Shown: positions 29,995 to 54,443 of the stretch, in pieces
Numbering within the stretch: position 1 is the first letter of the stretch
Layout: each line of letters starts with the position of its first letter
Assembly (NCBI GenBank): GCA_036925085.1
Contig: JAUPFP010000002.1
Span: 331,001-395,000, forward strand
Length of the DNA: 64,000 nt
Origin: Brachycybe producta
Lineage: Eukaryota; Arthropoda; Diplopoda; Playtdesmida; Andrognathidae
Direction: 5' to 3'
The notes under the pieces: model-generated
The model's database searches: none
Told to the model about the DNA's origin: nothing
What the model saw: only the letters and a program-made list of their open reading frames with translations
Program-made: the position numbers and the translations under genes

Positions 29995-29998
29995 CTTG

Positions 29999-31251: not shown

Positions 31252-32046
31252 TGTAACGTCCCGCCGGACCGTCACAATAACCCCAGTAAGTTCACCCCAA
31301 AAAGGACGTAAAACTTACCGCTTAACCGGCTCCTTACGGGGACGGGACCGTACCCGTAGCCGTCTCCCACACGGTGCTCCTTGAGTTGTGTCGGCTCCAC
31401 GGAGCCACCCTCGATGGACACGGACGAGAACCACGCCGCCACGCCGAGAATATCGCGGTAGAACACCGGTTCTACCGCGAGCCGACACGAGGACCGGCCG
31501 AAACAAGTCGGTAATAGGACGGTGGTGATTTCCCCAAACCAGAAACCCACCCCCCTCGCGGTACTCCCCAAGAAAAGACTCGGACACAAAGTAAGATGAA
31601 TATAAAAGTGGATTTATTCACACTTACGTTGATTAGATGCATAAAACGATGGCAGTGATATTTACACAACTTGGCTGGTCAACTTCTACCAGCCAAGCCC
31701 CCATAAATATACAAACAAGGCCAACAGGCCAAAGGCACAAAAACAGAAGAGGCACTGGCCAGTGGAGGTCTCCTTGACCTCCACCCACAGGTCTAGTCTC
31801 ATGTACAGCCTACAACCAACTGCCCAGATCCTGTGGTTGACTAGGCCACAGGAAACCTCCAGGCAACTCCACCTGGAGGGGACAGAGGTCACATCTGACC
31901 TCTCACCCATAGACTTCATGGTGAGAGGTCTGCTGGCACCAAAATGGCGTCCGACCTAACAGCCTACTGTAGCTGTCAGGCAGACCACCATAGGGAAATT
32001 CGTCTGCTCAATCAAATTTAAAAATTGAGCAGACCAGGTTGCCACA
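31252..32046 (-). mobile_element. Gypsy family A1 3' LTR
   Basis: 795 bp. Preceded in its sense by the purine-rich GGGAAGTTGAGAGGAT (polypurine tract). TATA-type (TATATTTATGG) and AATAAA words are present, and donor-like GTAAGT lies at 31313-31318 (minus strand). Confidence 0.95.
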
Positions 32047-32123
32047 ATCCTCTCAACTTCCCTGTTCCGTCTCGGGAACAGGTCAGTCAAGCCAGCCAGG
32101 ATTGCTCCCCGAACCTGACCTTC

Positions 32124-33053
32124 TTAGGTACCGGACGGCTTCTCTGGCGGTGTCGCGAAAGTGGAGCCCATCCACTCCGCAGCCCACCGACGTGCCCACC
32201 ACAAGCACATCTGGGTGTTACGCCACCCAAAACCAGTATCGAAGACCGTCCCCCTAAGACGGCTTTCCTCCAGGGCTCGGAATTCCTCGAAAGGAATATC
32301 CCGGAGTTGCGGACGCGTGTGAAGCGTCCGACTTGTTAGGAGGTCCACCAGGGCGACCGCGGGCTCGGTCTCGCACCCTGGTAGAGGCTCAGTTATAAAC
32401 TGTCCAGCCATACCTCCTAGGTCGCATCCCAGCAAACGTTGGATGAATGGGGCTGCATGCCGGGCTAGACGAACTATCCCGGCATCTAGCCCCACCACAT
32501 CCAAAATAGCAAACGTTTGCTGGACCGGAGCTGGAAGGAGATTATCAATCTCCATCCGGGGCTCACGGCCAAACAACAACTGATACGGAGAGACTTGCGT
32601 ACTCTCCTGGACAGCTGTGTTATAAGCCCACACGGCGGGCCGTAATTTATCCCACCAGTCATGCTGTTCCTTGAGGGGATCAAGGTACCGCTTGATGGTT
32701 TCCATTACGGTTTTATTTGTACGCTCCGTAAGCCCATTAGCTTGTGGATGGTACGCCGTCGTGAAGTGATGCGCTATGTTATAGCGCTCCCGGAACTTCA
32801 GCAGGACTTTGCTGGAGAACTGGGACCCACGATCCGAGACAAGAGCTTTCGGTGTACCATACACCGAAAAGATCTCGTCCTTCAGAAATTTCACCACACA
32901 GGCGGCCGTGGCCCTTCGTACCGCCCTTGCCACACCGTACCGGGTGAAATAGTCAACCATGATTAATACATAGGTGACTCCACCCACGGAGGCAGGAAAC
33001 GGTCCAACGAAGTCCATTCCCCAGGTATCAACTGGGTACTCCGGCACAATCGG
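32124..33053 (-). pseudogene. Gypsy family A1: truncated integrase fused in frame to ORF3 C-terminal domain
   Basis: Continues the pol frame after its single stop codon. The integrase core is present: VDTWGMDFVGPFPAS (Asp 1), LVSDRGSQFSS (Asp 2) and YHPQANGLTERTNK (Glu), then QLLFGREPRMEIDNLLP. At about 32521-32532 the integrase stops, and the ORF3 sequence VQQTFAILDVVGLD starts in the same frame, running to PEKPSGT and the stop. So about the last 200 residues of ORF3, including the CDLGGMAGQFITEPLPGC block, replace the integrase C-terminal domain. The normal integrase end survives at 61389-61808. This is a deletion product. Whether the fusion has a role is unknown. Confidence 0.85.
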
Positions 33054-36000
33054 TTAGAGAAATCCCTGACTTCGAGCGAACTGTCGCGCTCTCTGACACA
33101 CCAAACATGACTTAACATATTCGGCAGTGTCCCGCTTCATACCGATCCAGTAGAAGCGTGAGCGCAGTCTCTGGTAGGTCTTAAACATCCCGAAGTGACC
33201 AGCTTCGGGAATGTCATGTAGCTTCCTTAAGCAGAAAGCCCTGCATGACTTCGGAACTACCAACACAGTTCTCAACCGATCCTGGATGGATCTGATGGCA
33301 AACAACAAGTCATCTGCCACCACGAACTTGAACCGGAGGTTCGAGTTGGGGTCACGGAAGATTTCACTCTTCACTTTGGAGCACCAGCCATCGGCCTCTT
33401 GCTCCTTGACCCAATCCACCTCGGAACGGATGTGGTAAATAACCTCACCTACGTCGGCTTCGACGTATTCAGGTAAGGAAAGGTCCGCCACATCACGAAC
33501 AGGATACCGACTCAAAGCGTCGGCATCCACGTGCAGTGTTCCCTTCCTATACTGAACCTTAAACCGGTACTCTTGAAGCTGCATCTGCCAACGCCCCAAC
33601 CTGCCTTGCAGGTTTTTGGCTGTCTGCAGATAACAAAGAGCATGGTGATCTGTGACAATCACAAACTCCCGGTTAAAGAGGTAAGGACGGAATTTAACCA
33701 CGGCAAATATGACCGCCAAGCACTCCTGCTCGGTGACCGAATACCGTGTTTCCGCTCCTTTCATGAGTCGGCTTGCGTAGGCCAGAACACGGGGGACACT
33801 GTCCTCCGGTAACTTCTGGTAGACTACGACTCCCAAGCCGTACCCACTAGCGTCGGTATGGATAATTACCTCACCACGCGGATCGTACATGGTGAGTACC
33901 GGCGCTTCGGTTAAAAATGCCTTTAACCGAGCAAACGCTAGTTTGCACTGATCCGACCACTCGAAGGACGCATCCTTCTTTGTCAGATCGTGCAAAGGCC
34001 TTGCCACCTTGGCGAAGTCCTTGATGAACCTTCGATAGTAACCGGCCAGTCCGAGAAAACTGCGGACGCCTGTCACTGTCGTCGGGACATCAAACTCCTG
34101 GACTGCCCGCACGAGATCCGGGTCCGGAGCAACTCCCTCGGCACTCACTACGTGACCGAGATAACGTACTTTGTTAAAGCCAAAGAAACATTTCTTCGGC
34201 TGGAGTTTCAGCTCCGCCCCTCGTAACAGCCCAAGGACAGTGGAGAGTCTCTCGAGAAACTGCTCGAAGGTGTTCCCAAAGACGATAATATCGTCCAGGT
34301 ACACCAGACAAGTCTCCCACTTATGTCCTGCCAATAAGAGGTCTAGCGCTCTCTGCATGGTGGCTGGAGCATTACAGAGTCCGAAAGGCATTTTCCGGAA
34401 CTCAAACAGACCTTGAGAGCAAATAAATGCCGTTTTCTCAACGTCTGGCTCAGCCATCCGAACCTGCCAGTAACCACTAGCCAGGTCCAAGGTAGCGAAG
34501 AACTTCGCACCGGCCAATGAGTCGAGTGCATCATCGATGCGAGGCAACGGATACTGATCCAGCTTTGTCTGGGCATTCAGTTTCCGGTAGTCCACGCAAA
34601 AACGAAAGCCACCATCCTTCTTGCGGACAAGCAAGATAGGGCTCGCGTAGGGACTACGCGAAGGTTGGATAACTCCTGCATCCAACATCTTCGCCACCTC
34701 TTCTCTCTCGACTGCTCTGGCCGCTGGAGCGGTTCGACGCAATCCTTCACGCACAGGAGGTTGCCCACCGGTATCGATCGTATGTTCGACCAGAGAGGTT
34801 TCACCCAACTCTGTGAAGTCGAACGCGAAATGATCCCGGCGTGCCAGCAGGAACTCTCGAAGCCGTCTTGCCTCTTCAGGCTTCAGATTGTCACCAATGT
34901 TAAGACACTCTTCGAGGGTGGGAGCCGTCGCCACGTTGAGCACTTGGCGTCCGTTTCCGGACGCCCCTCTCAACTTAGACGAGGACTTCCCTGGTCGAAC
35001 CGTCCTCTGAGTGGGGTCTCCCCCTCTCAACTTAGACGGCTCTTCCAGCCCTACCACAATGGCAGCCTCCACTGCTTGAGCCGTGGCTACACCCTCTCCT
35101 GTTTCCAGGGCAATGGGTGCATTCCCCATGTTTTCAAGCCATATATCGTACGTGCCAAGCCGGTTAGCTGCAGCAATACCGGCCACAGCTAACACACCAA
35201 GTCCACCTAAGGCTTTCCGGTGCGGCTCCACGAGAAGCAGCTGGCCAGGGCCGGCATGCTCTACCAACGTCACAGATACGACACGTCGTACGTGGGCTGG
35301 TAGCCAGACATTCTCCCTCAGTCGCAGAGAACAAACTTCTCCGCGCCCGATAGAGGTTTTGGTCTCGGGCAGCTCTGGTGAAACAATGTTCACCCACCCG
35401 TCAACCTGCTCGAGTGCAGGCGGATCCACTGGGAGTTGCCGTCCCTGAGGCAAAGCCTCTGGTATCGGCGATGGAATTGCTTCCACCTCCCTAGGTTCTG
35501 CAAGCGCTCGATCGGTGAATGCAGCTTGGAGGGCGTCTGGATGTGCAGTCCAGACATCCTCCCGGAAGTAAACCTTCCGGTGCACGATATCAACCATCAA
35601 GCCGAAGCGTGAGGCGTGATCAACGCCCAACAACGCTTCCCCCTCTCCTTTTACCAAAAGGAGAGGCACCTTGATGGTTTTCTTGTGGATGGTCAATTCC
35701 ACATTTGTGACCCCTACTACCTCGATGGAGTGCCCACCCATTCCAAGAAGGAATGAAGGAACCGCCAGTTCCTCTATAGGCAACTCCATCACTCGTGCCG
35801 CCGTAATGCTTAGGACCGACACGTCGGCCCCGGTGTCTACGATCATCTCCAACAGACGATCGCCTATCGACACCCACACTCGGGGTGACCCTACATCATA
35901 GGCCCGGCTCTGAAGCTCAGGGATGGGAACCCTCGGGCTCCCACCATCGATCTTCTGCCTCCCGTCCACCTTACCGTCCACACCGGACGGTAATCCCAGA

Positions 36001-36353
36001 CGTGCAGAAGACTGGGGAACAGTCTCACCAACCAGAGACTCCCCAGGCACCACGGAAGGTTTGGGCACACCAACTCCTTCCGCCTGCTCGATGAGCGCAC
36101 GATCCAGCACCTCACCACTAGGCATATAGGGTGAGGGGGCAAACCAGCGATCCAGCTGGCTGCACACGGCCTCCAATGTGGAGCATGGCGATGGAAATAC
36201 CCACTGGGTAATTTCCGGGTCCGCAGACCTCGCCAGAGGCACTCCTGCCTTCCGCAGGACATCCACATATTTGGAGACCGCCCGGAGGTACGTCCCTCGT
36301 TCAGAGCTCAGGCCGTGACAGGCACCTGAGCTTTGAAGCTTTACCGGTCGCAC
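33054..36353 (-). pseudogene. pol: Gypsy family A1: pol (protease, RT, RNase H, integrase zinc domain), one nonsense codon
   Basis: An 1,099-codon open frame, in the -1 frame relative to gag. Domains in order: unassigned N-terminal region; aspartic protease with DTGAD at about 173-177 and LLGVD at 241; a long linker; RT with KKDGGFRFCVDYRKLN (about 578-593), LDLASGYWQVRM, PFGLCNAPATMQR and VYLDDII (YLDD at about 685-688); thumb; RNase H (IIHTDASGYGLG at about 829, TEQECLAV, VTDHHALCYL, VDADALSRYPV); integrase HHCC zinc domain (EAGHFGMFKT...CLVCQRAR). It ends at TAA where the + strand copy has CAA (after SQGFL), a single C-to-T change; the frame is open beyond it. No ATG is needed if pol is made by frameshifting from gag. 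Otherwise nearly intact. Confidence 0.95.
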
Positions 36354-36389
36354 ACCACTCAGTTCGGTGGCGACCGGCGGCGGTTTAAC
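36344..36389 (-). promoter_or_regulatory. Candidate -1 ribosomal frameshift signal between gag and pol
   Basis: On the minus strand G TTA AAC (36389-36383) lies in the gag frame exactly as a -1 slippery heptamer should. A 5-base spacer follows, then arm CCGGTCGC (36377-36370), continued by CACC. The loop holds the gag TGA. The return arm is GGTG, one bulged T, GCGACCGG (36351-36344). GTTAAAC is a known slippery site in arteriviruses. A slip here moves the ribosome from gag into pol. The + strand copy keeps the site and stem at 46842-46887 with one stem mismatch. Confidence 0.7.
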
Positions 36390-38134
36390 GAGGATCTCTC
36401 CTCGTCCTCCACGAGTCGATAGTAGAACTGGCCATCGTGAACGGTGGCCAGGTACTTACGACCCTCCAGCCAAACTGGTGCAACACCAGCGGTTGGCTGG
36501 AGGCTCTGACTTTCGTCAGGCACCACTCTAGCAACTTGCCCTTTGGCCGCAGCCTTCGGACAATCCTTCCTCAGGTGACCCATTTGGTTACACCCGAAAC
36601 AAGGACCTAGTCGCCGGAGTGAATCTCCCGTATGGTCCGTACCACGAGGCGTTGCCGCCGGCTGACCTCCGCCAGAGCCTGCCTGCTTCTTCTTCTTGCC
36701 TCCGGTCTTGGCTCCTGCTTTGTCCGACTTGGACGGTGCAGCAGCCTTCGCACCCGTTTGGCTTGAAGATGACGCCTTGGCAGCGCTCCCAGAGCTAGCC
36801 GTGGTTCCGGAGGACGGAGCGTTAGCCCTGTCCGGAGGAACCCCTCTTGTACGGGTAGGTAATTTACCTACAAGAAGCAAATCGGCTTCGACCAGCCGTG
36901 CCTTTCGGGCATATGCCTCCACCGTACCGGCCTTACAACCGATCAACTGATCAGTGATGGCCGTCTGGAGTTTCCGTTTGAAGCGAATGAGCCGACAGCT
37001 CTCGTCTTCGCCCGGAGACACTCGGTCGGACAGTTCCAAGAACCGCCAGTAGAATGCCTGTACAGACTCGGTAGCCCCCTGTTTCATGGACTCAAATTCA
37101 CCGAAACAGAGGCGAGCCTGATTGCTTGTGCTGAAGCGGCTACGCATAGCATCCTTCAGCTCCGTCCAGGTCAGGTCCGGAAGAGTTTCCACCAACGTGG
37201 CGTAATACTCTTCCGCCGGACCGTCCAGCAGAAACGTAAAGAAACTGCATCGGGATTTGTCCGTCCAGCGCTGAGCTCGGGCTTTCGCTTCGAACTTGCG
37301 GAGAAAAGGCGTCAAGTCCTCTCTGCCGTCGTAACGAGCAAAAGAGTGGACCGGGTTAAAGAACCCGAACGCCTGAACCTCCGCCGGAACCGCTGGAGCG
37401 GGCGTCCAAGCAGCGGCGCTAACCCTGCGAGGTTGCCTGCTCCGGTTCCCCGAAACGTCAGACTCCGACTCAGCTTCCGAGGGAATCATCATCTGAACCC
37501 TCGGCTGCTGTCCGGGTACAGCAGGAGCTCCCCGGCCAAGTCCCCGAGGAGACGGCCTGGGTGCTACCCGCGGAGGGACCAACCGGGGAAGTACCGGTGG
37601 TTCCTCTCGCCGTGCGCCTTCACGCACGGGCGACAGTGAGAACCGAGGTGCCACCCTCGGCTCAACCGACGACCGGGACAGTCGTCCTTCCAACCGAAGG
37701 ACATCTATCCCGTAAGCAATCTCAACGAGTTGCTGCTCGGATAGCCCGGCCAAAAAGGCCCGGCCCTCACGTGCAGTCTCGTCCGGGATTTCCACCATGT
37801 CCCTACGGGGCTGATCGCCACGTCCAACCGGACGGGCGACTGTGGAAACTTGGACAAGCGGCCGTGGCTGCTCGTCCTCCCCGGTGAGATCACCGTCGGA
37901 CCCACTGTCTTCAACCAGGTATTCCCCCGGACGGACGTCACGGCAGCGTTTCCGCACCGTGACCCAGTCCTCCGGGAGATCCCCGCCTATGCTACCGCTA
38001 GGTCCCTCTGTTTCCAGAGGATCCCCGCCTTCTGCCCCCACAAGGGGACGGTCGACTACGCGGCCGCGTAACTCTAACCCCGCATCTGCTCCAAGTTCCC
38101 GACCTCCCGTCGGTACTTTTGGGGCTGGCTCCAT
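36359..38134 (-). CDS. gag: Gypsy family A1: gag
   Basis: 591 codons, ATG to TGA. The N-terminal 240 residues are acidic then Pro/Arg-rich. Residues about 255-385 are a retrotransposon gag (capsid-like) domain (FARYDGREDLTPFLRKFEAK, WTELKDAMRSRF, VQAFYWRFLELSDRV). About 435-485 is a Ser/Ala/Lys-rich basic tail, and one zinc knuckle, CFGCNQMGHLRKDC, sits at 512-525. The product would form the particle and bind RNA. The frame is intact and 591 codons in both large copies (other at 45097-46872), so this length is original. The stop lies in the loop of the frameshift hairpin. Start choice: first ATG after the leader, same in both copies. Confidence 0.95.
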   Translation of the reverse strand: MEPAPKVPTGGRELGADAGLELRGRVVDRPLVGAEGGDPLETEGPSGSIGGDLPEDWVTVRKRCRDVRPGEYLVEDSGSDGDLTGEDEQPRPLVQVSTVARPVGRGDQPRRDMVEIPDETAREGRAFLAGLSEQQLVEIAYGIDVLRLEGRLSRSSVEPRVAPRFSLSPVREGARREEPPVLPRLVPPRVAPRPSPRGLGRGAPAVPGQQPRVQMMIPSEAESESDVSGNRSRQPRRVSAAAWTPAPAVPAEVQAFGFFNPVHSFARYDGREDLTPFLRKFEAKARAQRWTDKSRCSFFTFLLDGPAEEYYATLVETLPDLTWTELKDAMRSRFSTSNQARLCFGEFESMKQGATESVQAFYWRFLELSDRVSPGEDESCRLIRFKRKLQTAITDQLIGCKAGTVEAYARKARLVEADLLLVGKLPTRTRGVPPDRANAPSSGTTASSGSAAKASSSSQTGAKAAAPSKSDKAGAKTGGKKKKQAGSGGGQPAATPRGTDHTGDSLRRLGPCFGCNQMGHLRKDCPKAAAKGQVARVVPDESQSLQPTAGVAPVWLEGRKYLATVHDGQFYYRLVEDEERSSLNRRRSPPN

Positions 38135-38765
38135 TTTTCACCGTAAATGAATGGTAAAATCTGGACAAAGCCACCAGATCTCGGGTTTCCACCGTCGAAA
38201 ACGGTAATCCCACGGACAAAAGTCCGTCAAATACCGTAACGAACGGATGGAACCGTGCAAAACCGCGGTATCACGGACAAAAGTCCGTGTCCCACGGTGA
38301 AGAACGGTCAGAGTTTGACCTTTACCGGTTTCTACCGCGGTATAACGGACAAAAGTCCGTCTCTCGCGGTGTACTTCACGGTAAAAGACCTTTTACCACT
38401 TTCTACCGTGGACCAACGGACAAAAGTCCGTACACCACGGTGTACTTGCGGTAAAATACCGTACACCACCAAAAACCACGGTACCACGGACCGTAGTCCG
38501 TGCCCCATGGTAATTCGACGGTACCAATACGGTTACCGACGGTAGATTTACCGTAAACCACGGTACAACGGACCAAAGTCCGTTCCCCACGGTATACAAC
38601 GGTAAATCAACGGTGAAACGGTCGTTTCCGCCGCTGTCCCACGGACCAAAGTCCGCGCCCAGTGACGTACTCTCACCGCACGGTGATTCGACCGACTTAA
38701 CGGTCGAACTCACGGTAAATCACCGTGCGAGAAGCGGGGTACAGGTACCCGGCGCCTCCACCAAT
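38135..38765 (-). promoter_or_regulatory. Gypsy family A1: 5' leader with seven-hairpin array
   Basis: Non-coding stretch between LTR and gag. The LTR is followed by ATTGGTGGAGGCGCCGGG; a TGG two bases in could start a primer-binding site, and TGGAGGCGCC slightly further resembles the complement of a tRNA-Thr end. I could not assign the primer. Short palindromes ACGGACAAAAGTCCGT or close variants are at 38212-38227, 38272-38289, 38345-38360, 38416-38431, 38485-38502, 38568-38583 and (core only) 38643-38654. Between them ACGGT/ACCGT words are dense. Same layout in the + strand copy. Confidence 0.8.
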
Positions 38766-39560
38766 TGTAACGTCCCGCCGGACCGTCACAATAACCCCAG
38801 TAAGTTCACCCCAAAAAGGACGTAAAACTTACCGCTTAACCGGCTCCTTACGGGGACGGGACCGTACCCGTAGCCGTCTCCCGCACGGTGCTCCTTGAGT
38901 TGTGTCGGCTCCACGGAGCCACCCTCGACGGACACGGACGAGAACCACGCCGCCACGCCGAGAATATCGCGGTAGAACACCGGTTCTACCGCGAGCCGAC
39001 ACGAGGACCGGCCGAAACAAGTCGGTAATAGGACGGTGGTGATTTCCCCAAACCAGAAACCCACCCCCCTCGCGGTACTCCCCAAGAAAAGACTCGGACA
39101 CAAAGTAAGATGAATATAAAAGTGGATTTATTCACACTTACGTTGATTAGATGCATAAAACGATGGCAGTGATATTTACACAACTTGGCTGGTCAACTTC
39201 TACCAGCCAAGCCCCCATAAATATACAAACAAGACCAACAGGCCAAAGGCACAAAAACAGAAGAGGCACTGGCCAGTGGAGGTCTCCTTGACCTCCACCC
39301 ACAGGTCTAGTCTCATGTACAGCCTACAACCAACTGCCCAGATCCTGTGGTTGACTAGGCCACAGGAAACCTCCAGGCAACTCCACCTGGAGGGGACAGA
39401 GGTCACATCTGACCTCTCACCCATAGACTTCATGGTGAGAGGTCTGCTGGCACCAAAATGGCGTCCGACCTAACAGCCTACTGTAGCTGTCAGGCAGACC
39501 ACCATAGGGAAATTCGTCTGCTCAATCAAATTTAAAAATTGAGCAGACCAGGTTGCCACA
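38766..39560 (-). mobile_element. Gypsy family A1 5' LTR
   Basis: 795 bp, nearly identical to 31252-32046. It would hold the element's promoter; donor-like GTAAGT is at 38827-38832 (minus strand), 61 bases from the inner end. Confidence 0.95.
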
Positions 39561-43668: not shown

Positions 43669-44467
43669 TGTGGCAACCTGGTCTGCTCAATTTTTAAATT
43701 TGATTGAGCAGACGAATTTCCCTATGGTGGTCTGCCTGACAGCTACAGTAGGCTGTTGGGACGGACGCCATTTTGGTGCCAGCAGACCTCTCACCATGAA
43801 GTCTATGGGTGAGAGGTCAGAAGTGACCTCTGTCCCCTCCAGGTGGAGTTGCCTGGAGGTTTCCTGTGGCCTAGTCAACCACAGGATCTGGGCAGTTGGT
43901 GGTAGGCTTTGAGACTGGATAGACCTGTGGGTGGAGGTCAAGGTAGACCTCCACTGGCCAGCTTCTGGTTCTTCTTTGTTTGCCTTTTGGCCATTAGGCC
44001 TTTGTGTATATATTTATGGGGGCTTGGCTGGTAGAAGTTTACCAGCCAAGTTGTGTAAATATCATTACTGCCATCATTTTCATCGTAATACGTCGTAAGT
44101 GAATAAATCACTTTATATCATCTTACCTCGTGTGTCTGTGTCTTTTTATTGGGGAAGTACCGCGTGGAAGGGTGGGATTACCGGTTGGGGAGTCACCACC
44201 GTCCTGTTTCCGACTTGTTTCGGCCGGTCTTCGTGTCGGCTCGCGGTAGAACCGGTGTTCTACCGCGATATTCTCGACGTGGCGGCGTGGTATTTCGTCG
44301 TGTCCGTCGGGCGTGGCTCCTGGAGCCGACACAACTCAAGGAGCACCGTGCGGGAGACGGCTACGGGTACGGTCCCGTCCCCGTGAGGAGCCGGTTGAGC
44401 GGTAAGTTTTACGCCGTTTTTGGAGTGAACTTACTCGGGTATTGTGACGGTCCGGCGGGACGTTACA
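43669..44467 (+). mobile_element. Gypsy family A 5' LTR (subfamily A1)
   Basis: 799 bp. TATA-like TGTATATATTTATGG at about 44005-44018, AATAAA at 44102-44107, donor-like GTAAGT at 44402-44407 (another at about 44095). The U5 part reads TGGCTCCTGGAGCCGACAC, as in the minus-strand element. Confidence 0.95.
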
Positions 44468-45096
44468 ATTGGTGGAGGAGCTGGGCGCCTGTACCCCACC
44501 TCTCGCACGGTGATTTACCGTGCATTCGACCGTTAAGTCGGTCGAATCACCGTGCGGTGAGAGTACGTCACTGGGCGTGGACTTTGGTCCGTGGGACAGC
44601 GGCGGAAACCACCGTTTCACCGTTAATTTGCCGTTGTTTACCGTGGGGGACGGACTCTGGTCCGTTGTACCGTCGTTAACGGTAAATTTACCGTCGGTTA
44701 CCGTATTGGTACCGTCGAATTACCGTGGGGCACGGACTACGGTCCGTGGTACAGTGGTTTTCGGTGGTGTACGGTATCGTACCGCAAGTACACCGTGGTG
44801 TACGGACTTCTGTCCGTTGGTCCACGGTAGAAAGTGGTAAAAGGTCTTGTACCGTGAAGTACACCGTGAGAGACGGACTTTTGTCCGTTATACCGCGGTC
44901 GAAACCGGTGAAGTAAACTCTGACCGTACTTTACCGTGGGACACGGACTTTTGTCCGTGATACCGCGGTTTCGCACGGTTCCATCCGTTCGTTACGGTAT
45001 TTGACGGACTTTTGTCCGTGAGATTACCGTTTTCGACGGTGGAAACCCGATATCTGGTGGCTTTGTCCAGATTTTACCGTTCGTTTACGGTGAAAA
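44468..45096 (+). promoter_or_regulatory. Gypsy family A: 5' leader with seven-hairpin array
   Basis: Palindromes at 44579-44590 (core GGAC..GGTCC), 44650-44665, 44731-44748, 44802-44817, 44873-44888, 44942-44959 and 45004-45019; most read ACGGACTTTTGTCCGT. Spacing is about 60-80 bases. A further 9-bp inverted repeat (ATTCGACCG / CGGTCGAAT, 44524-44547) lies near the LTR. No AUG-initiated frame of note. Possible roles are RNA packaging, dimerisation or translation control; none is shown. Confidence 0.8.
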
Positions 45097-46872
45097 ATGG
45101 AGTCAGCATCAAAAGTACCGACGGGAGGTCGGGAACTTGGTGCAGATGCGGGGTTAGAGTTACGCGGCCGCGTAGTCGACCGTCCCCTTGTGGGGGCGGA
45201 AGGTGGGGATCCTCTGGAAACAGAGGGACCCAGCGGTAGCGTAGACGGGGATCTCCCGGAGGAATGGGTCACGGTGCGGAAACGCCGCCGTGACATCCGT
45301 CCGGGAGAATACCCGTTAGAAGACAGTGAGTCCGAAGGTGATCTCACCGGGGAGGACGAGCAGCCACGGCCGCTTGTCCAAGTTTCCACCGTCGCTCGTC
45401 CGGTTGGACGTGGCGATCTTCCCCGTAGGGATATGGTGGAAATCCCGGACGAGACTGCACGTGAGGGCCGGGCCTTTTTGGCCGGGCTATCCGAGCAGCA
45501 ACTCGTTGAGATTGCTTACGGAATAGATGTCCTTCGGTTGGAAGGACGACTGTCCCGGTCCACGGTTGAGCCGAGGGTGGCACCTCGGTTTTCACTGTCG
45601 CCCGTGCGTGAAGGCGCACGAGGAGAGGAACCATCGGTACTTCCCCGGTTGGTACCTCCGCGGGTAGCACCCAGGCCGTCTCCTCGGGAACTTGGCCGGG
45701 GAGCTCCTGCTGTGCACGGACAGCAGCCGAGGGTTCTGATGATGATCCCCTCGGAAGCTGGGTCCGTGTCTGACGTTTCGGGGAACCAGAGCAGACAACC
45801 TCGCAGGGTTAGCGCCGCTGCTTGGACGCCCGCTCCAGCGGTTCCAGCGGAGGTTCAGGCGTTCGGGTTCTTTAACCCGGTCCACTCTTTTGCTCGTTAC
45901 GATGGCAGAGAGGACTTGACGCCTTTTCTCCGCAAGTTCGAAGCAAAAGCCCGAGCTCAGCGCTGGACGGACGAATCCCGATGCAGTTTCTTTACGTTTC
46001 TGCTGGACGGTCCGGCGGAGGAGTATTACGCCACGTTGGTGGAAACTCTTCCAGACCTGACCTGGACTGAGCTGAAGGATGCTATGCGTAGCCGCTTCAG
46101 CACAAGCAACCAGGCTCGCCTCTGTTTCGGTGAATTCGAGTCCATGAAACAGGGGGCTACCGAGTCTGTACAGGCATTCTACTGGCGGTTCTTGGAACTG
46201 TCCGACCAAGTGTCTCCGGGCGAAGACGAGAGCTGTCAGCTCATTCGCTTCAAATGGAAACTCCAGACGGCCATCACTGATCAGTTGATCGGTTGCAAAG
46301 CCGGTACGGTGGAGGCATATGCCCGAAAGGCACGGCTGGTAGAGGCCGATTTGCTTCTTGTAGGTAAATTACCTACCCGTACAAGAGGGGTTCCTCAGGA
46401 CAGGGCTAACGCTCTGTCCTCCGGAACCACGGCTAGCTCCGGGAGCTCTGCCAAGGCTTCATCTTCGAGCCAAACGGGTGCGAAGGCTGCTGCACCGTCC
46501 AAGTCGGACAAAGCAGGGGCCAAGACCGGAGGCAAGAAGAAGAAGCAGGCAGGCTCTGGCGGAGGACAGCTGGCAGCAACGCCTCGAAGTGCGGACCGTA
46601 CAGGAGATTCACTCCGGCGACTAGGTCCTTGTTTCGGGTGTAACCAGATGGGTCACCTGAGGAAGGATTGTCCGAAGGCTGCGGCCAAAGGGCAAGTTGC
46701 TAGAGTAGTGCCTGACGAAAGTCAGAGCCTCCAGCCAACCGCTGGCGTTGCGCCAGTTTGGCTGGAGGGTCGGAAGTACCTGGCCACCGTTCACGATGGC
46801 CAGTTCTACTATCGACTCGTGGAGGACGAGGAGAGAAACTCGTTAAACCTCCGCCGGTCGCCACCGAACTGA
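45097..46872 (+). CDS. gag: Gypsy family A: gag
   Basis: 591 codons, ATG to TGA, same length as the minus-strand copy. It keeps the capsid-like domain (FARYDGREDLTPFLRKFEAK) and the zinc knuckle CFGCNQMGHLRKDC, and differs by scattered substitutions. The frame is fully open although pol behind it is dead. The intact gag in both copies suggests either youth or recent selection. Expression is expected from the 5' LTR, with pol reached by frameshifting at 46842. Confidence 0.95.
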   Translation: MESASKVPTGGRELGADAGLELRGRVVDRPLVGAEGGDPLETEGPSGSVDGDLPEEWVTVRKRRRDIRPGEYPLEDSESEGDLTGEDEQPRPLVQVSTVARPVGRGDLPRRDMVEIPDETAREGRAFLAGLSEQQLVEIAYGIDVLRLEGRLSRSTVEPRVAPRFSLSPVREGARGEEPSVLPRLVPPRVAPRPSPRELGRGAPAVHGQQPRVLMMIPSEAGSVSDVSGNQSRQPRRVSAAAWTPAPAVPAEVQAFGFFNPVHSFARYDGREDLTPFLRKFEAKARAQRWTDESRCSFFTFLLDGPAEEYYATLVETLPDLTWTELKDAMRSRFSTSNQARLCFGEFESMKQGATESVQAFYWRFLELSDQVSPGEDESCQLIRFKWKLQTAITDQLIGCKAGTVEAYARKARLVEADLLLVGKLPTRTRGVPQDRANALSSGTTASSGSSAKASSSSQTGAKAAAPSKSDKAGAKTGGKKKKQAGSGGGQLAATPRSADRTGDSLRRLGPCFGCNQMGHLRKDCPKAAAKGQVARVVPDESQSLQPTAGVAPVWLEGRKYLATVHDGQFYYRLVEDEERNSLNLRRSPPN

Positions 46873-46887
46873 GTGGTGTGCGAACGG
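46842..46887 (+). promoter_or_regulatory. Candidate -1 frameshift signal, + strand copy
   Basis: GTTAAAC at 46842-46848 in gag phase, a 5-base spacer, arm CCGGTCGC 46854-46861, return arm GCGAACGG 46880-46887 (one mismatch against the minus-strand copy's perfect stem). The gag stop lies in the loop. Confidence 0.65.
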
Positions 46888-49430
46888 TAAAGCTTCAAAG
46901 CTCAGGTGCCTGTCACGGCCTGAGCTCTGAACGAGGGACGTACCTCCGGACGGTCTCCAAATATGTGGATGTCCTGCGGAAGGCAGGGGTGCCTCTGGCG
47001 AGGTCTGCGGACCCGGAAATTACCCAGTGGGTATTTCCATCGCCATGCTCCACATTGGAGGCCGTGTGCAGCCAGCTGGATCGCTGGTTTGCCCCCTCAC
47101 CCTACATGCCTAGTGGTGAGGTGCTGGATCGTGCGCTCATCGAGCAGGCGGGAGGAGTTGGTGCGCCCATACCTCCTGTTGTGCCTGGGAAGTCTCTGGT
47201 TTCTGAGACAGTGCCCCAGCCTTGTGCACGTCGGAATTACCGTCCGGTGTGGACTGTAAGGTGGACGGGATGCAGAAGGTCGATGGTCGGAACCCACGGG
47301 TTAACATTCCTGAGCTTCAGAGCCGGGCCTACGACGTAGGTTCACCACGGGTGTGGGTATCGATTGGCGATCGTCTCTTGGAGGTGATCATAGACGCCGG
47401 GGCCGACGTGTCGGTCCTAAGCATTACAGTGGCACGAGTGATGGGGTTGCCTATAGAGGAACTAGCGGTTCCTTCATTCTTTCTTGGAATGGGTGGGCAC
47501 TCCATCGAGGTAGTAGGGGTCACAAATATGGAATTGACCATCCACAAGAAAACCATCAAACCTAACCCTCTCTTTTCACCAAAAAGAGAGGGCGAAGCGT
47601 TCTTGGGTGTTGTTCACGCCTCACGCTTCGGCTGGATGGTAGATATCGTGCACCATAAGGTTTACTTCCGGGAGGATGTCTGGACGGCACATCCAGATGC
47701 CCTCCAAGCTGCAGAAGGAAGAGGTGGCAAAGATGTTGGATGCAGGGGTTATCCAACCTTCGCGTAGCCCCTACATGAGCCCTATCTTGCTTGTTCGCAA
47801 GAAGGATGGTGGCTTTCGTTTTTGTGTGAACTACTGGAAACTGAATGCCCAGACAAAGCTGGATCAATATCCGTTGCCTCGCATCGATGATGGGCTCGAT
47901 TCGTTGGCCTGTGCGAAGTTCTTTGCTACCTTGGACCTGGCTAGTGGTTACTGGCAGGTTCGGATGGCTGAGCCCGACGTTGAGAAAACGGCATTTATTT
48001 GCTCTCAAGGTCTGGTTGAGTTCCAGAAAATGCCTTTCGGACTCTATAATGCTCCAGCCACCATGCAGAGAGCGCTAGACCTCTTATTGGCAGGACATAA
48101 GTGGGAGACTTGTCTGGTGTACCTGGACGATATTATCGTCTTTGGGAACACTTTTGAGCAGTTTCTCGATAGACTCTCCATTGTCCTTGGACTGTTACAA
48201 GGGGCGGAGCTAAAACTCCAGCCGAAGAAGTGTTTCTTTGGCTTTAACAAAGTGCGTTATCTCGGTCACGTAGTGAGTGCCGAGAGAGTTGCTCCGGACC
48301 CGGATCTCGTGCGGGCAGTTCAGGAGTTTGATGTCCCGACGACGGTGACAGGCGTCCATAGTTTTCTCGGACTTACCGGTTACTATCGAAAGTTCATCAA
48401 GGACTTTGCCAAGATGGCAAGGTCTTTGCTTGATCTGACGAAGAAGGATGCGTTCTTCGAGTGGTTGGATCAGTGCAAACTAGTGTTTGCTCAGTTAAAG
48501 GCATTTTTAACAGAAGCGCCGGTACTCACCATGTACGATCCTCGTGGTGAGGTATTTATCCATACCGACGCTAGTGGGTACGGCTTGGGAGTCGTAGTCT
48601 ACCAGAAGTTACCGGAGGACAATGTCCCCCGTGTTCTGGCCTAAGCAAGCCGGCTCATGAAAGGAGCGGAAACACGGTATTCGGTTACCAAGCAGGAGTG
48701 CTTGGCGGTCATGTTTGCCGTGGGTAAATTCCATCCTTACCTCTTTAACCGGGAGTTTGTGATCGTAACAGATCACCACGCTCTTTGCTATCTGCAGACA
48801 GCCAAAAACCTGCAAGGCAGGTTGGGGCGTTGGCAGATGCAGCTTCAAGAGTACCGGTTCAAGGTTCAGTATAGGAAGGGAACACTGCACGTGGATGCCG
48901 ACGCTTTGAGTCGGTATCCTGTTCGTGATGTGGCGGACCTTTCCTTGACTGAATATGTCGAAGCCGACGTAGTTGAGGTTATTTACCACATCCGTTCCGA
49001 GGTGGACTGGGTCAAGGAGCAAGAGGCCGATGGCTGGTGCTCCAAAGTGTAGAGTGAAATCTTCCGCGACCCCAACTCGAACCTCCGGTTCAAGTTTGTG
49101 GTGGCAGATGACTTGTTGTTTGCCATCAGGTCTATCCAGGATTGGTTGAGAACTGTTCTGCTAGTTCCGAAGTCGTGCAGGGCTTTCTGTCTAATGAAGC
49201 TACATGACGTTCCCGAAGCTGGTCACTTCGGGATGTTTAAGACCTACCAGAAACTGCGCTCATGCTTCTACTGGATCGGTATGAAGCGGGACACGGCCGA
49301 ATATGTTAAGTCATGTTTGGTGTGTCAGAGAGCGCGACAGTTCGCTCGAAGTCAGGGATTTCTCCAACCGATTGTGCCGGAGTACCCAGTTGATACCTGT
49401 GGAATGGACTTCGTTGGACCGTTGTGGGGT
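46850..49430 (+). pseudogene. Gypsy family A: pol, inactivated
   Basis: Same domains as 33054-36353, with several breaks. There is a frameshift near 47228 before the protease (47222-47767 holds IDAGADVSVLS, where the active-site DTG reads DAG). A deletion of roughly 840 bp near 47710 removes the PR-RT linker and joins HPDALQ to EEVAKML. RT then runs open from 47676 (FRFCVNYWKLN, where D and R of the usual block are changed; VYLDDIIVFGN intact). TAA at 48642 and TAG near 49050 interrupt RNase H and what follows. Integrase stops at VEWTSLDR/GMDFVGP near 49420 and runs into unrelated sequence. Confidence 0.92.
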
Positions 49431-50639
49431 ACCCTGTGGGTGTCCCTACCGTGGTGGAGTAGAGCAGGCGGTCCGCTACTGTGGGCGGACGGCTGGGAGA
49501 GGAGGCGGCCCGGACATTGCGGTGTTTGGGGCCCGCCGCGGTTTCGGTAGAAACCAAGGGCGGCCCATCACCAGTTGTCCAGCCAAAGGCCCGACAAAAT
49601 CGGTTTGTGGACGGAGAAATCCATCCGTGAAAACCTCCGTGAAATTTCCCATTACCGTCAATATAAGAGAATTGACGGTAAATGTCTCTACCCACCAGTT
49701 CCAGTCTTGGTGTAGGAGAATTCACCGTGTGTCTGCCTCTAAAAAGGCAGACGATGGTACAATCTCCATGGTGACCATGCATGAGGCGGCTGATGACGTT
49801 TTAGCCGCTACTGCACGGCCATTAGCCGCTAAGACGGTAAATTTGGTGGCTAGGCGCCATAATGTTTGTAAACGAAACAAACACAGGACGCCGGCCGCAC
49901 GTGTTTTTCTAAAACCAGAAATTCACCGTCTAAAAAGCGTGCCAAGACTGGAAAAGAGGGGCAATATTGATAAAGTAAGTCCCTCTAAGGGAATTTCCTT
50001 CTCCTGCCTGTTGGCAGTTCTCTTTTATTTGTTAACGGTGTGTTTTACGGTCAATGACCGTATACACACGTGGTGGGAGTGGTTTCGCCGCCATGACTGT
50101 TGTCATGGTGGCCAAGCCACTATGGAAAGCACTTTTCCGGCGGGTTCGGCCCATCCGAGCGCCATTTCACTTGGGAAGGCCCAAGTTCGACGGTGTTTGG
50201 ACGGTAGAAGCCCGCCAGGGAGTGGTTTTCACCAATCGAAGGCGGTAAGACACGGTTTTGACCGTGAATTCCCAACTTTGGACGGTGATAACGGCATTGT
50301 GCATGATAGAAGTCCGTGCAATGCCCTTTCCAACCGTCAGAGCTCGGTGAAAGGGTGTTTTCACCGTCCGAAGGTGGTCAGCCATGGTTTTTACCGTGGT
50401 TTACCGACTTTGGACGGTGAAAACCGCGATTCGCACGGTGAAATCCCGTGGAATGCCCTTTCTACCTGTTCCGAAAGGGGGAAAAGTGGTTTTCACCGTA
50501 TGAAGGCGGTAAAACACAGTTTTGACCGTGAATTACCGACTTTGGATGGTGAAAACATGAATTGTCACTGTAAAAGCCCGTGGAATTCACTTTTCCACGG
50601 TGAAAACTTGTTTTTGACGGTTTCTTCCCTGTTTATTAG
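49421..50639 (+). other. Gypsy family A: ACGGT-rich spacer between pol and ORF3
   Basis: No convincing coding function, although the frame happens to be open into ORF3. Motifs such as GACGGTGAAAACCG, TTTACGGTCAATGACCG and CACGGTGAAA recur. The word ACGGT/ACCGT is also the hallmark of the leader before gag, so the two regions may share origin or binding function. It aligns with 961-2066 of copy 1. Confidence 0.6.
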
Positions 50640-50640
50640 G
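50615..50640 (+). promoter_or_regulatory. Candidate 3' splice site upstream of ORF3
   Basis: A T/C-rich run (TTTCTTCCCTGTTTATTAG) directly before GTCCACC. The same place in copy 1 reads TTTGTTCCCTCTTCAATAG|GTCC (2048-2070). The open ORF3 frame continues from it without an ATG for well over 100 codons, which fits an exon that receives its start from a spliced upstream piece. Confidence 0.55.
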
Positions 50641-53572
50641 TCCACCACGGAGAAGGAGAAAGAGGAAGGCGACGGGAGTGGCCGACGGTCTCCCTCCCTC
50701 AGCCCGCTGCATTCTGGGGATGCAAGGCTGTTGGAGTCGGGATCGGAGGGCTCCCCATCATCTGGCGGACCGGAAACGGCTGACGCTACCGTGGAATCAG
50801 TTGATTCCCCGGCGGCAGAGGCCGTGGAAGGTCCGAAGTCTGCCCAGTCGACTCTGACCGGTGTCGGAGCCTTCTGGGGCAGATACCTGCAGTCTCCCAC
50901 CAGGGATACGGCTGCTACCACCGATCAATTGGTGGCGGCGGTAGTTTCTCCGGTTGGAGAGCCTGCAGAAGCGGGTGTTGATGGTGGGAAAGCGGCTACC
51001 GGTGTGGTAACCGCTAGTACCCCGGAACCTGGGTCTCCGGCTGTTCGAGACCTCCTAGATTGGTCTAGGGTGGTCGAGGACAGTGAGGACGTCTCTTTGG
51101 GAGCGTCCTTAGTCATTGACACGAAGATGGAGGTCGAAACCACCGTTGATTCGGTGGCTGACGCCTCCAGGCAGTGGCGGAGCCGTAACGCCTCTTCAGA
51201 GGGCTCTTTGGAGTCTGACGGGAGTAGTTCGGCCTCCGAGGGTAAACCGTCTGGGACGGGATCCCCCGGAATTCTTCCCGCCGATTGAATGTCTTTGGAG
51301 GCCGTGGCTGTGTTCTTGGCCGAAAAAGAAGGCCGCTTGGATCGGTTGGATGAAGCTAGATGGGACATGGTCCAGGAAGGTGGCTTCCTGGTCGGGGACC
51401 ATCGATTCTTCATCGGGGAGATTCCGACCGTGCAGTTGAGGAAGGACGGCGCAAAGAAGCGCAAGAAGAAGTCCGGAGCCGCACGGATCACTGCCAGAGC
51501 CAAGGCTCTCGCAGAGAGAAAGGCAATGCTTAAAGCTAAGGAGGAGGCGTTGAAGAAGTTCACGCCTGCTGTGGGGCTTCGAGCAGAGACTCTCGCCCGC
51601 CCTGACGGTTGTTCAGGGGCTGCTTGGCCAGAGAAGCCGGCTGCTGGATCGGGTCTGCCCGAGGCAGTAGCTGGCCCCTCCAGCTGGCAGTCGGACAACC
51701 CGAAGAGGGACCGGCGAGCGGAGAAGAAGGCTACCCAGCCTCCAACACCCGCTCCCGGTAAAACGGGGAAATCTGTGAGTGGTGGTGGTGGCAAGGGAAA
51801 AAAAGGTCCCGCCCTCGCACCCCACCAGTGGCTAAAAGCTCGAGAGGCAAAAAGGCCAGGTCCTTCGGTCAAGGAAAGGCCTTCGAACCTCGGAAGCCCG
51901 AGAGCTTGGAGAACAAGCTCAAACGGCTTCAGGCTCAAGCAGCGAGCTTGCACCGACAGATCGCTCGTGCGGTTGGTGCAGGTGAGTGGCAGGAGTTTGA
52001 GCACAGGGCTGCGGAGTTCCCTCCCCTGCAGGGAATGCCCGCCCGGAGTCAGCTCAACACAGGGGAACCTCCTGTCGGTCGTGGCGTCCCGTCGATTGCG
52101 AGTGCCACGACCATCGCTGGCCAGAAGCGAATCGAAGAGAGGGAGGCGATGCAGGCTTCCAGTGCACCAGCCCATGGTGCGGAAGCCAAAGCTACTGGTG
52201 GCAAGAGTCAGCCGACTCTTGTACCGAAGGAGAAGTATCTCCTTCGGGATGGTCGAGGAAGATTTGTCTCCGGACAGTCATCCTCGGCTGTCACCTCGGC
52301 TAAGGGCACTTCTACGAAAAAGAGTACGGCTCCGGCCAGAAAACCTTCGAAGAAGGAGTCCGAGAAGGCGAAGGGGCTAACCACCCGCCAAAGCCTGATC
52401 GGCCCAGTAAGTTGTCGGAGTCAGTTAAGTCTGACACGACGCATGGTCAACCTTCCTCTCACGGGAAGAAAAAGAAAAAGAAGGACCGTAAAAAGTCCAA
52501 GCGTGAGAGGAAGGGAAGTCCGACACCCTCCAGTAGTAGGAGCCAGGGAGCCGAAACTAGAGGCGTCGTGGCGGAAAAGGAGGAGTCCCGGCATGCTCAG
52601 GCAAGCACGCCGGCCGGGAGTCAACCGGTCCATACCCGTCCCGTTGAGGCGGCGCGGATGGATGGTAGGTCGATGCGCGACATTTTCGTCGGCACGCCTC
52701 CATCCTCCCTGAAGGTGGATGCGGTCTCGAACCTGCGGGTTCGAGCAGTGGGAACCCTGCACCATGTGACTTTGCCCTCACCTAAGGGCGAAGGAACCTC
52801 GGTTGCAGGAGTCAGTGTTCCCACAAGACGTGACCCCGTGACCCCCAGTGGGGGTACACCCTTCTCTCCAGTTTATGGCGGCGGGGTATTTGATACCCTA
52901 GGACCCGAATCGTCAACCTCCCCTAGGCCTGAGGCTGAGGGACAGTGTATTGGCGCATTGCCCCCGTATTCAGATGCAGAGGTGTATCTGAATAACCGGC
53001 TTGGTCTGTGGCAGGACCAGCCGGGAATGGAGGGTTGCCAATACCACGGCTACTACCGTCTAGATGAGCCACTTCCAGAGCCGTGGGTAGCAAGGCTACC
53101 GCCATACAACATGCGCCATGTGGTGGCGTTTGGTTGTGGAGGTTTTCCGGTGGTGATGGTCGTAAACCCGGTACAGCAAACGTTTGCTATTTTGGATGTG
53201 GTGGGGCTAGATGTTTTGATAGTTCGTCTAGCCCGGCGTGCAGCCCCATTCATCCAACGTTTGCTGTGATGCGACTTAGGAGGTATGGCTGGACAGTTTA
53301 TAACTGAGCCTCTACCAGGGTGCGAGACCGAGCCCGCGGTTGCCCTGGTAGACCTCCTAACAAGTCGGACGCTTCGCACGCGTCCGCAACTTCAGGATAT
53401 TCCTTTCGAGGAATTCCGAGCCCTGGAGGAAAGCCGTCTTAGGAGGACTGTCTTCGATACTGGTTTTGGGTGGCGTAACACCCAGATGTGCTTGTGCTGG
53501 GCACGTCGGTGGGCTGCGGAGTGGATGGGCTCCACTTTCGCGACACTGCCAGAGAAGCCGTCTGGAACCTAA
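50640..53572 (+). pseudogene. Gypsy family A: ORF3, unknown protein in env position
   Basis: About 975 codons in three frames. Part 1, to TGA at 51286-51288, is acidic and Ser/Ala/Gly-rich. Part 2, 51289 to about 51830, has DHRFFIGEIPTVQLRKDG, a KKRKKKSG basic cluster and an Ala/Lys/Glu helix (AKALAERKAMLKAKEEALKK) likely to form a coiled coil. After a frameshift, 51828-52400 has NKLKRLQAQAASLHRQIARA (second coiled coil) and DGRGRFVSGQ. After a one-base loss near 52375, 52412-53572 has KKKKKKDRKKSKRERKGSP and the C-terminal domain (SDAEVYLNNRLGLWQDQPG, CQYHGYYRLDEPLPEPWVA, VVAFGCGGFPVVMVVNPVQ, TEPLPGCETEPAVALVDLL, DTGFGWRNTQMCLCWARR), itself broken by a stop at 53267. There is no signal peptide or transmembrane helix, so it does not look like an envelope protein; basic clusters suggest nucleic-acid binding or nuclear entry (inference). 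Confidence 0.7.
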
Positions 53573-53649: not shown

Positions 53650-54443
53650 TGTGGCAACCTGGTCTGCTCAATTTTTAAATTTTGATTGAGCAGACGAATT
53701 TCTCTATGGTGGTCTGCCTGACAGCTACAGTAGGCTGTTAGGTCGGACGCCATTTTGGTGCCAGCAGACCTCTCACCATGAAGTCTATGGGTGAGAGGTC
53801 AGATGTGACCTCTGTCCCCTCCAGGTGGAGTTGCCTGGAGGTTTCCTGTGGCCTAGTCAACCACAGGAACTGGGCAGTGTGTTGTAGGCTGTGAGGAAGA
53901 CTAGACCTGTGGGTGGAGGTCAAGAAGACCTCCACTGGCCAGTGCCTCTTCTTGGCTTCATTTGTGCATTGGCCGGGAGGCCTTTGTTTTTGTATATTTA
54001 TGGGTGTTGGCTGGACAAGGGATCCAGCCAATGTGTAAATATTCACTGCCATCATTTTTATCATCGTAAGTGTGAATTAAACACTTTTATCTTATTCATC
54101 TTACTTTGTGTCCATGTCTATTTCTTGGGGAGTTACCGCGAGGGGGGGTGGGTTTCTGGTTTGGGAAAACTCCACCGTTTTTTACCGACCTGTTTCGGCC
54201 GGTACTCGTGTCGGCTCGCGGTAGAACCGGGGTTCTACCGCGATATTCTTGACGAGGTGGCATGTCATTGTCGTGTTTCACCGTCGGGAGAGCTCCGCGT
54301 CGACACCACCCAAAGGGTGCACTGTGTGGAGAGGCGGCTACGGGCACGGTCCCGTCCCCGTCGTCGGAGCTCTGGTACCGGTAAGTGTGAACGTTTTTGA
54401 AGTTCGTTCATCGGGTATTGTAACAGTCCGGCGGGACGTTACA
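53650..54443 (+). mobile_element. Gypsy family A 3' LTR (subfamily A2)
   Basis: 794 bp; polypurine-like AAGTTGAGAGGAT before it. U5 reads GGGAGAGCTCCGCGTCGAC, unlike the 5' LTR but like 29196-29994. GTAAGT at 54381-54386. Confidence 0.95.

What the first reader, a model, noticed from the sequence alone, without database searches (positions are those of the whole stretch)
50640..53572. A large third reading frame (ORF3) of unknown function in the env position of gypsy family A
Two copies (2067-4749 and 50640-53572) carry homologous frames of about 970 codons between pol and the 3' LTR, and a third keeps the C-terminal 200 residues. It has acidic, coiled-coil, strongly basic and globular Cys-containing parts, but no visible signal peptide or membrane helix. 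Most gypsy extra ORFs are envelope-like; this one is not obviously so. The C-terminal block is the best conserved across all three copies.
Basis: partly seen in the sequence, partly recalled or inferred. Interest (0 to 1): 0.8.

Follow-up and report, generated by a model that had tools for sequence, protein, structure and literature searches.

The report
Third gene of a gypsy retrotransposon
A jumping gene of the gypsy type carries a large third protein where an envelope gene would normally sit; natural selection kept it, it does not look like an envelope, and it was probably made from a spliced message to help the element handle its own RNA.

Summary
The frame is real and was under purifying selection. 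Between copies A and B its dN/dS is 0.37 [0.30-0.46] over 873 codons, against 1.09 and 0.80 in the shifted frames and 0.31 for RT; the C-terminal block is strictest at 0.26. A codon model trained only on copy F's gag-pol picks the same frame in 30 of 32 windows. Both copies are broken; the third keeps 134 C-terminal residues, fused in frame to an integrase core.

It does not look like Env: 1 sequon, 8 Cys and no membrane helix in 966 residues. It has an acidic N part, zipper-like helices, K/R tracts and a conserved C-terminal part.

It was probably spliced: a U5 GTAAGT site is the best donor in 6 of 6 LTRs, and the best acceptors scanned lie at 50640 and 2067. The predicted intron ends in ~1 kb that folds strongly (z -16, -14).

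Best guess: an accessory protein handling the element's own RNA, like CERV of Cer1. That function is inference. No homologue was found, but the database barely covers this family. Consensus and read-through were referred.

The parts
43669..44467 (+). 5' LTR of copy B (TGTGGC...TTACA), with TATA-like box at 44007 and AATAAA at 44102
44402..44402 (+). predicted 5' splice donor (first intron base) in U5; best-scoring donor in each of the 6 LTR copies that span it
44468..45096 (+). leader: no ATG in B, many short hairpins, ACGGT/ACCGT 43 per kb
45097..46872 (+). gag (591 aa, Retrotrans_gag, CCHC knuckle)
46878..49423 (+). broken pol: protease, RT, RNase H, HHCC; homology to copy F stops at 49423, at the start of the integrase core
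49523..50639 (+). region X between pol and ORF3: strongly folding, ACGGT/ACCGT-rich, 2.8 copies of a 132-bp repeat at 50221-50593; predicted 3' part of the intron; nearly stop-free in the ORF3 frame
50640..50640 (+). predicted 3' splice acceptor (first exon base), score 9.3; the aligned site in copy A at 2067 scores 9.9
50640..51285 (+). ORF3 N part, acidic (net -20 over 215 aa), dN/dS 0.51 [0.31-0.78]; codon signal rises from the window at 50690 on
51289..51801 (+). ORF3 M1: basic, coiled-coil-like heptads, K/R cluster; dN/dS 0.35; preceded by a nonsense codon at 51286
51828..52304 (+). ORF3 M2: basic, leucine-zipper-like heptads; dN/dS 0.40; other register than M1
52304..52789 (+). ORF3 C1a: K/R-rich tract; dN/dS 0.43
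52790..53572 (+). ORF3 C-terminal part, 7 of the 8 Cys, dN/dS 0.26; interrupted by a nonsense codon at 53267
53650..54443 (+). 3' LTR of copy B
2067..4749 (+). ORF3 of copy A (decayed); in-frame ATG in a near-consensus context at 2218
954..2066 (+). region X of copy A
32124..32528 (-). ORF3 C-terminal 134 aa in copy F, in frame behind the integrase core (open frame 33047-32124)
31252..39560 (-). copy F: both LTRs, leader, gag 38134-36359, pol 36353-33054, 4-bp target duplication

Best explanation
ORF3 is a genuine third gene of this gypsy-type LTR retrotransposon. It was most likely translated from a spliced mRNA that joins a donor in U5 of the 5' LTR to an acceptor just upstream of ORF3. The product is not an envelope protein but a soluble, probably nuclear accessory protein: acidic N part, dimerising coiled coils, K/R-rich tracts for nuclear import or RNA binding, and a conserved C-terminal part. 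Its most likely job is to bind the element's own unspliced RNA, whose leader and intron are rich in a shared ACGGT/ACCGT hairpin motif, and to promote its nuclear export or packaging, as CERV does for Cer1. Shown here: coding under purifying selection, and non-envelope make-up. Supported by sequence only: splicing and the hairpin regions. Inferred: nuclear location, RNA binding, the export role. My odds that it is a real, selected, non-envelope gene are about 0.85; that it was made by splicing, about 0.65; the figure below is for the full mechanism.
For: dN/dS 0.37 [0.30-0.46] for ORF3 against 1.09 and 0.80 with all segments shifted, 0.31 for RT-HHCC and 0.71-0.99 for LTR frames. Codon model trained on F gag-pol picks the ORF3 frame in 30 of 32 windows from 50600 on and both frame changes. 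A GTAAGT site is the top donor in 6 of 6 LTR copies that span it. The acceptors at 50640 and 2067 are the best in the stretches scanned (49300-51000 and 900-2500). K/R clusters and zipper-like heptads; 1 sequon and no hydrophobic 19-mer above KD 1.65 in ORF3 pieces. ACGGT/ACCGT: 43 per kb in the leader, 14-29 in X, 2-5 elsewhere in the element. X folds at z -16.0 and -14.2. Precedent: CERV, from a spliced mRNA and needed for gRNA export (PMC10309623; abstract, passages, section 15).
Against: No RNA evidence of splicing. The splice matrices were approximate and recalled; acceptors of at least 9.3 occur 35 times per strand in the window and donors of at least 9.6 occur 17 and 16 times. The solo LTR's donor scores only 7.4. 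The first ATG after the acceptor (50720 / 2147) is out of frame. Taken part by part, off-frame dN/dS is not always near 1: 0.67 for N, 0.52 for M2, and 0.49 [0.29-0.84] in a stop-ridden frame of X2, so N and M2 alone are weak cases. Pair conservation in X between A and B is not clearly better than in controls. ORF3 N itself folds better than shuffles (z -9.3). The stop-free frame in X is not explained by an intron. No homology to CERV or Rev was tested.
Confidence: 0.33

Rival explanations
1. ORF3 is a structural or particle-associated protein (a second Gag-like protein), whose basic and coiled-coil parts package RNA or assemble particles rather than export RNA.
For: Basic tracts and coiled-coil-like heptads fit a nucleocapsid-like role; large size; selection in the C-terminal part as strict as in RT.
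Against: No Retrotrans_gag or CCHC match in ORF3 pieces; no convincing similarity to the element's own gag or pol (best E 0.076 outside the fused copy F).
Confidence: 0.22
2. ORF3 is part of a longer membrane protein that starts in X (in-frame ATG 49777) and has a signal anchor near 50000, so it is a divergent envelope or another cell-transfer protein.
For: X in B is open in the ORF3 frame: 0 stops where simulations average 12-13 in their best frame, 0 of 3000 reaching it in each of three models; 1 stop in 366 aligned A codons (null 5.5, P 0.02). Hydrophobic 19-mer with KD 2.27. Envelope-free transfer by a short transmembrane protein is reported for Drosophila elements (PMC11952523, abstract and outline only).
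Against: dN/dS of X in that frame is 0.76 [0.47-1.22] and 1.11 [0.62-2.18]. The frame is the best-scoring one in 3 of 13 windows of the codon model. The simulations do not keep the 132-bp in-frame repeat, and X of copy A as it stands has at least 7 stops in every frame. ORF3 itself has 1 sequon, 8 Cys and K/R tracts unlike an ectodomain.
Confidence: 0.15
3. ORF3 is a captured host or foreign gene with an enzymatic or host-modulating role, as in rotifer LTR elements with esterase or exonuclease ORF3s.
For: Such captures are documented (PMC5408684, abstract and section 3.3); the C-terminal part is compact and the most conserved.
Against: Best Pfam E-value for an ORF3-only piece is 0.027, below the curated cut-off; PDB sequence best E 0.14 and 1.5; no fold match at E <= 0.001 for the one model searched. 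All searches used pieces, and both models were poor (mean pLDDT 42.6 and 46.6).
Confidence: 0.18
4. The frame is an accident of composition or of antisense constraint, not a gene.
For: GC-rich sequence (0.59) makes long frames common; a 416-aa antisense frame overlaps it.
Against: Frame-specific dN/dS and codon-usage support along the length.
Confidence: 0.03

Closest known systems
CERV of Cer1, a C. elegans LTR retrotransposon (PMC10309623; gypsy type is recalled)
   Same: Large novel protein from a spliced mRNA of an LTR retrotransposon; predicted leucine zipper, K/R nuclear-localisation motif and Cys-containing domain; no resemblance to known retroviral proteins (paper).
   Different: The CERV mRNA has five exons, four of them in the frame of the Cer1 polyprotein; here one exon in its own frame downstream of pol is predicted. 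Homology was not tested. Function here is unknown.
Retroviral Rev-type export proteins with a structured RNA target (recalled, and as summarised in PMC10309623 section 15)
   Same: Layout: spliced basic protein plus structured RNA inside the intron of the genomic RNA.
   Different: ORF3 is about 930-970 residues, far larger (Rev's size recalled); no export signal or RNA binding shown; no homology tested.
Non-envelope ORF3s of bdelloid rotifer LTR retrotransposons (PMC5408684)
   Same: Extra ORF beside gag and pol that is not an envelope.
   Different: Those have recognisable esterase or exonuclease domains; none recognised here.
Envelope genes of gypsy-type errantiviruses (recalled)
   Same: Position between pol and 3' LTR; spliced expression.
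   Different: No signal peptide or membrane helix, few sequons and Cys, and no Pfam envelope match in ORF3.

Membership tests
Ty3/gypsy LTR retrotransposon | LTRs flanking gag and pol, in the order protease-RT-RNase H-integrase | tested here: met
   Pfam matches and positions; integrase core behind RNase H and HHCC in copy F, fragments likewise in D. The order as the defining feature is recalled; no RT tree was built
Ty3/gypsy LTR retrotransposon | short target duplication on insertion | tested here: met
   4 bp at copy F and at the solo LTR; flanks do not match in B; A not testable
gypsy-type envelope protein | signal peptide or membrane helix in ORF3 | tested here: not met
   highest KD19 1.65 in 966 residues, a hydropathy scan only; the hydrophobic segment (2.27) lies in X, upstream of the predicted acceptor
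gypsy-type envelope protein | glycosylated, Cys-rich ectodomain | tested here: not met
   1 sequon and 8 Cys in 966 residues
gypsy-type envelope protein | match to an envelope or fusion-protein family | tested here: not met
   no such Pfam match in any piece; pieces only
CERV/Rev-like export protein | encoded by a spliced mRNA | tested here: inconclusive
   conserved donor and acceptor sites, no RNA data
CERV/Rev-like export protein | nuclear localisation and gRNA binding | not testable with these tools
   K/R clusters only
CERV/Rev-like export protein | structured target RNA in the intron | tested here: inconclusive
   fold z -16.0 and -14.2, but pair conservation not clearly better than controls
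CERV family | sequence homology to CERV | not tested
   no CERV sequence was fetched
Gag-like second protein | capsid or zinc-knuckle domain in ORF3 | tested here: not met
   pieces only

The most novel reading that the evidence does not exclude
ORF3 and the ACGGT/ACCGT hairpins of the leader and of X form an independently evolved RNA-export (or RNA-packaging) system of a gypsy element: a large spliced regulatory protein of a new family plus its repeated RNA target, analogous to Rev with its response element and to CERV, but related to neither.
Probability: 0.18. Interest if true: 0.78.

Novelty: new variant of a known kind. Interest (0 to 1): 0.52.

Why it matters
Extra ORFs of gypsy elements are often called envelope-like from their position. 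This one was under selection close to that on pol, yet lacks envelope features. If it is a spliced RNA-handling protein, it would be a further retrotransposon solution, beside CERV, to the problem of exporting unspliced genomic RNA. The motif shared by leader and X gives a directly testable RNA target.

Tried and rejected
Envelope: rejected for ORF3 itself on sequons, Cys, hydropathy and Pfam. A Ulp1-type protease reading of the C-terminal part, made by eye, had no Pfam support and was dropped. Own gag or pol duplicate: no convincing match. Known domain: Pfam at E up to 10 gave only sub-cut-off hits for ORF3 pieces (best LEP503, E 0.027); PDB sequence best E 1.5 and 0.14. AlphaFold2 models of the two halves of the C-terminal part were poor (mean pLDDT 46.6 and 42.6); Foldseek was run on the first only and gave nothing at E <= 0.001. 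Homologues: an ORF3 piece, gag of copy F and the open pol frame of copy F gave 0 (at E <= 10), 0 and 3 hits in the protein database (in the last two only the 7,991 and 7,993 candidates sharing most words were scored), and the first two gave 0 confirmed relatives in viral contigs. Because gag also fails, these null results say little about ORF3.

Covariation as proof of RNA structure in X: broken pairs were fewer than under random placement (45 against 66.8, 0 of 2000; other direction 52 against 64.7, P 0.0035). But controls ORF3 N and RT show it too (P 0.001, 0.0085), while ORF3 C and gag do not (0.21, 0.18), and compensatory changes are not in clear excess in X (P 0.16, 0.12) though they are in the ORF3 N control (0.02). 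The RNAalifold consensus is fitted to both copies and was not used as evidence. Not claimed.

Gag-start exon for ORF3: the donors above 6.5 behind the gag ATG of B are in the wrong phase for the 50640 acceptor, 4 of 4 up to 47000. In copy F one weak LTR donor (39064, 6.6) follows an ATG (39156) in the right phase; F has no such acceptor, and B has no ATG there, so it was not pursued.

Start codon at 2218 / 50791: dN/dS does not settle it. The stretch 50640-50790 upstream gives 0.45 [0.16-1.47], the stretch after it 0.53 [0.30-0.94].

Full report
What is in the window. Pieces of one gypsy-type LTR family were mapped by tblastn and blastn. Copy B (43669-54443, plus) has LTR, leader, gag, a broken pol, region X, ORF3 and LTR. 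Copy A (1-5658, plus) starts at the window edge within pol and has X, ORF3 and a 3' LTR. Copy F (39560-31252, minus) has both LTRs, leader, gag and pol; a stop lies between the HHCC motif and the integrase core, and the core then runs in frame into the last 134 residues of ORF3. Copy D (about 59794-61805) holds broken fragments from RT to the integrase core and, by eye, the integrase tail. A solo-like LTR lies at 29196-29998 and an LTR fragment at 7841-8208. Gag, protease, RT, RNase H and integrase core were named by Pfam.

Is ORF3 a gene? Three tests agree. A/B substitutions fall 90/97/149 on codon positions 1/2/3 when the ORF3 segments are summed. Nei-Gojobori dN/dS is 0.37 [0.30-0.46] over 873 codons (gapped codons and the stretches at the frame changes left out), against 1.09 and 0.80 with all segments shifted. 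By part it is N 0.51, M1 0.35, M2 0.40, C1a 0.43, C-terminal 0.26; RT-HHCC is 0.31 and LTR frames 0.71-0.99. The parts differ in weight: off-frame values run from 0.52 (M2) and 0.67 (N) to 1.29 (C-terminal), and one stop-ridden frame of X2 gives 0.49 [0.29-0.84], so the case rests on the whole and on the C-terminal part. A codon-usage model trained on copy F's gag and pol frames, which hold no ORF3, scores the ORF3 frame best in 30 of 32 windows from 50600 on and places both frame changes of B. A and B are decayed copies, so constraint in the active lineage was probably stronger (inference).

How broken are the copies? B has nonsense codons at 51286 and 53267 and frame changes near 51800-51860 and 52300. 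A has 6 stops in the 873 aligned codons and 14 indels in ORF3 relative to B. A and B both lack a recognisable integrase core, with different breakpoints; in B a weak tblastn stretch remains (49374-49655, 28% identity). F's junction suggests that an ancestor had integrase and ORF3 in cis.

What does the protein look like? The N part is acidic (net -20 in 215 aa), M1, M2 and C1a are basic (+13 to +14 each), and the C-terminal part is near neutral with 7 of 8 Cys. Zipper-like heptads lie in M1 and M2, K/R clusters in M1 and C1a (simple heuristics). There is 1 sequon in 966 residues, and the strongest 19-residue hydrophobic window is KD 1.65. This is not an envelope make-up. Pfam, PDB sequence and fold searches on pieces gave no match.

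How would it be expressed? The LTRs hold a TATA-like box and AATAAA and, near the end of U5, a GTAAGT donor that is the best donor in each of the 6 LTR copies that span it (score 9.6-10.5 in five, 7.4 in the solo LTR) while its flanks vary. The best acceptors of the stretches scanned are at 50640 in B (9.3) and 2067 in A (9.9). Such sites are not rare: donors of at least 9.6 occur 17 and 16 times on the two strands of the window, acceptors of at least 9.3 occur 35 times on each. The matrices were approximate and recalled. From an assumed transcription start at 44035 to the gag ATG, B has 0 ATGs in 1062 nt (Markov mean 8.6, 0 of 500 simulations as low); F has 2. After the acceptor the first ATG (50720 / 2147) is out of frame. 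A has an in-frame ATG in near-consensus context at 2218, behind its stop at 2188; the aligned B codon at 50791 is not ATG. The rise of the codon signal from the window at 50690 on fits a start there, but dN/dS cannot tell (0.45 [0.16-1.47] before, 0.53 [0.30-0.94] after).

Region X and the leader. ACGGT or ACCGT occurs 43 times per kb in the leader of B (42 in F), 14 and 29 in the two parts of X, 2 to 5 elsewhere in the element, and 0.6-0.7 in two AT-richer stretches outside family A. The leader reads as many short hairpins. X folds at z -16.0 in B and -14.2 in A, against -9.6 for the leader, -9.3 for ORF3 N and -5.4 for gag, each with 20 shuffles. Evolutionary support for the pairs was not clearly better than in controls. 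X also has an open frame in register with ORF3. In B it has 0 stops, where Markov simulations average 12-13 in their best frame and 0 of 3000 reach it in each of three models; the simulations do not keep the 132-bp in-frame repeat, and X of A as it stands has at least 7 stops in every frame because of indels. In aligned codons A has 1 stop in 366 (null 5.5, P 0.02). But the dN/dS of that frame is 0.76 and 1.11, and it scores best in only 3 of 13 codon-model windows. It encodes a hydrophobic segment of KD 2.27. I could not decide whether X is only RNA, an N-terminal extension, or both.

Interpretation. The best-supported reading is a spliced, non-envelope accessory protein. Nearest in layout is CERV of Cer1, needed for export of unspliced genomic RNA (abstract, passages and section 15 seen). 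The export role for ORF3 is inference from layout and composition. Eight answered paper searches listed no paper whose title or abstract start describes this element; two listings were cut (20 of 26, 10 of 40), the library lacks most subscription journals, and no element name was available to search for.

Limits. The host is unknown, its genome could not be searched (18 of 18 calls unanswered), and the protein database barely holds this family (gag 0 hits, pol 3 distant hits). dN/dS rests on one pair of decayed copies. B may itself be a recombinant: its LTRs are 18% apart and its flanks do not match, whereas F and the solo LTR show 4-bp duplications.

Noticed in passing
49430-50639 and 954-2066: Region X has a nearly stop-free frame in register with ORF3, with a hydrophobic segment and an in-frame ATG at 49777, but dN/dS near 1. 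Unexplained.
   Followed up: partly
44468-45096 and 49523-50639: ACGGT/ACCGT motif strongly enriched in leader and X, in repeated short hairpins; possible RNA or DNA binding array.
   Followed up: partly
33047-32124 (minus): Copy F joins the integrase core in frame to the last 134 residues of ORF3.
   Followed up: partly
43669-54443: Copy B's two LTRs differ by 18% and its flanks show no target duplication, unlike F (ACTG) and the solo LTR (CTTG): possible recombinant of two insertions.
   Followed up: partly
44035-45096: No ATG in the 1062 nt before gag in copy B; F has two.
   Followed up: yes
28148-31080 (minus): A second gypsy family with RT and integrase-type frames, 23-33% identical to family A pol; the solo LTR 29196-29998 of family A appears to be inserted in it.
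   Followed up: no
55503-56062: Tandem array of about 16-bp units (10-bp spacing at its start) downstream of copy B.
   Followed up: no
57063-58057: Nested inverted repeats (arms 39-100 nt, 73-91% complementary), perhaps a hairpin-type non-autonomous element.
   Followed up: no
9860-10357: 165-aa frame that resembles a Ulp1-type protease by eye; recalled motif, not tested.
   Followed up: no
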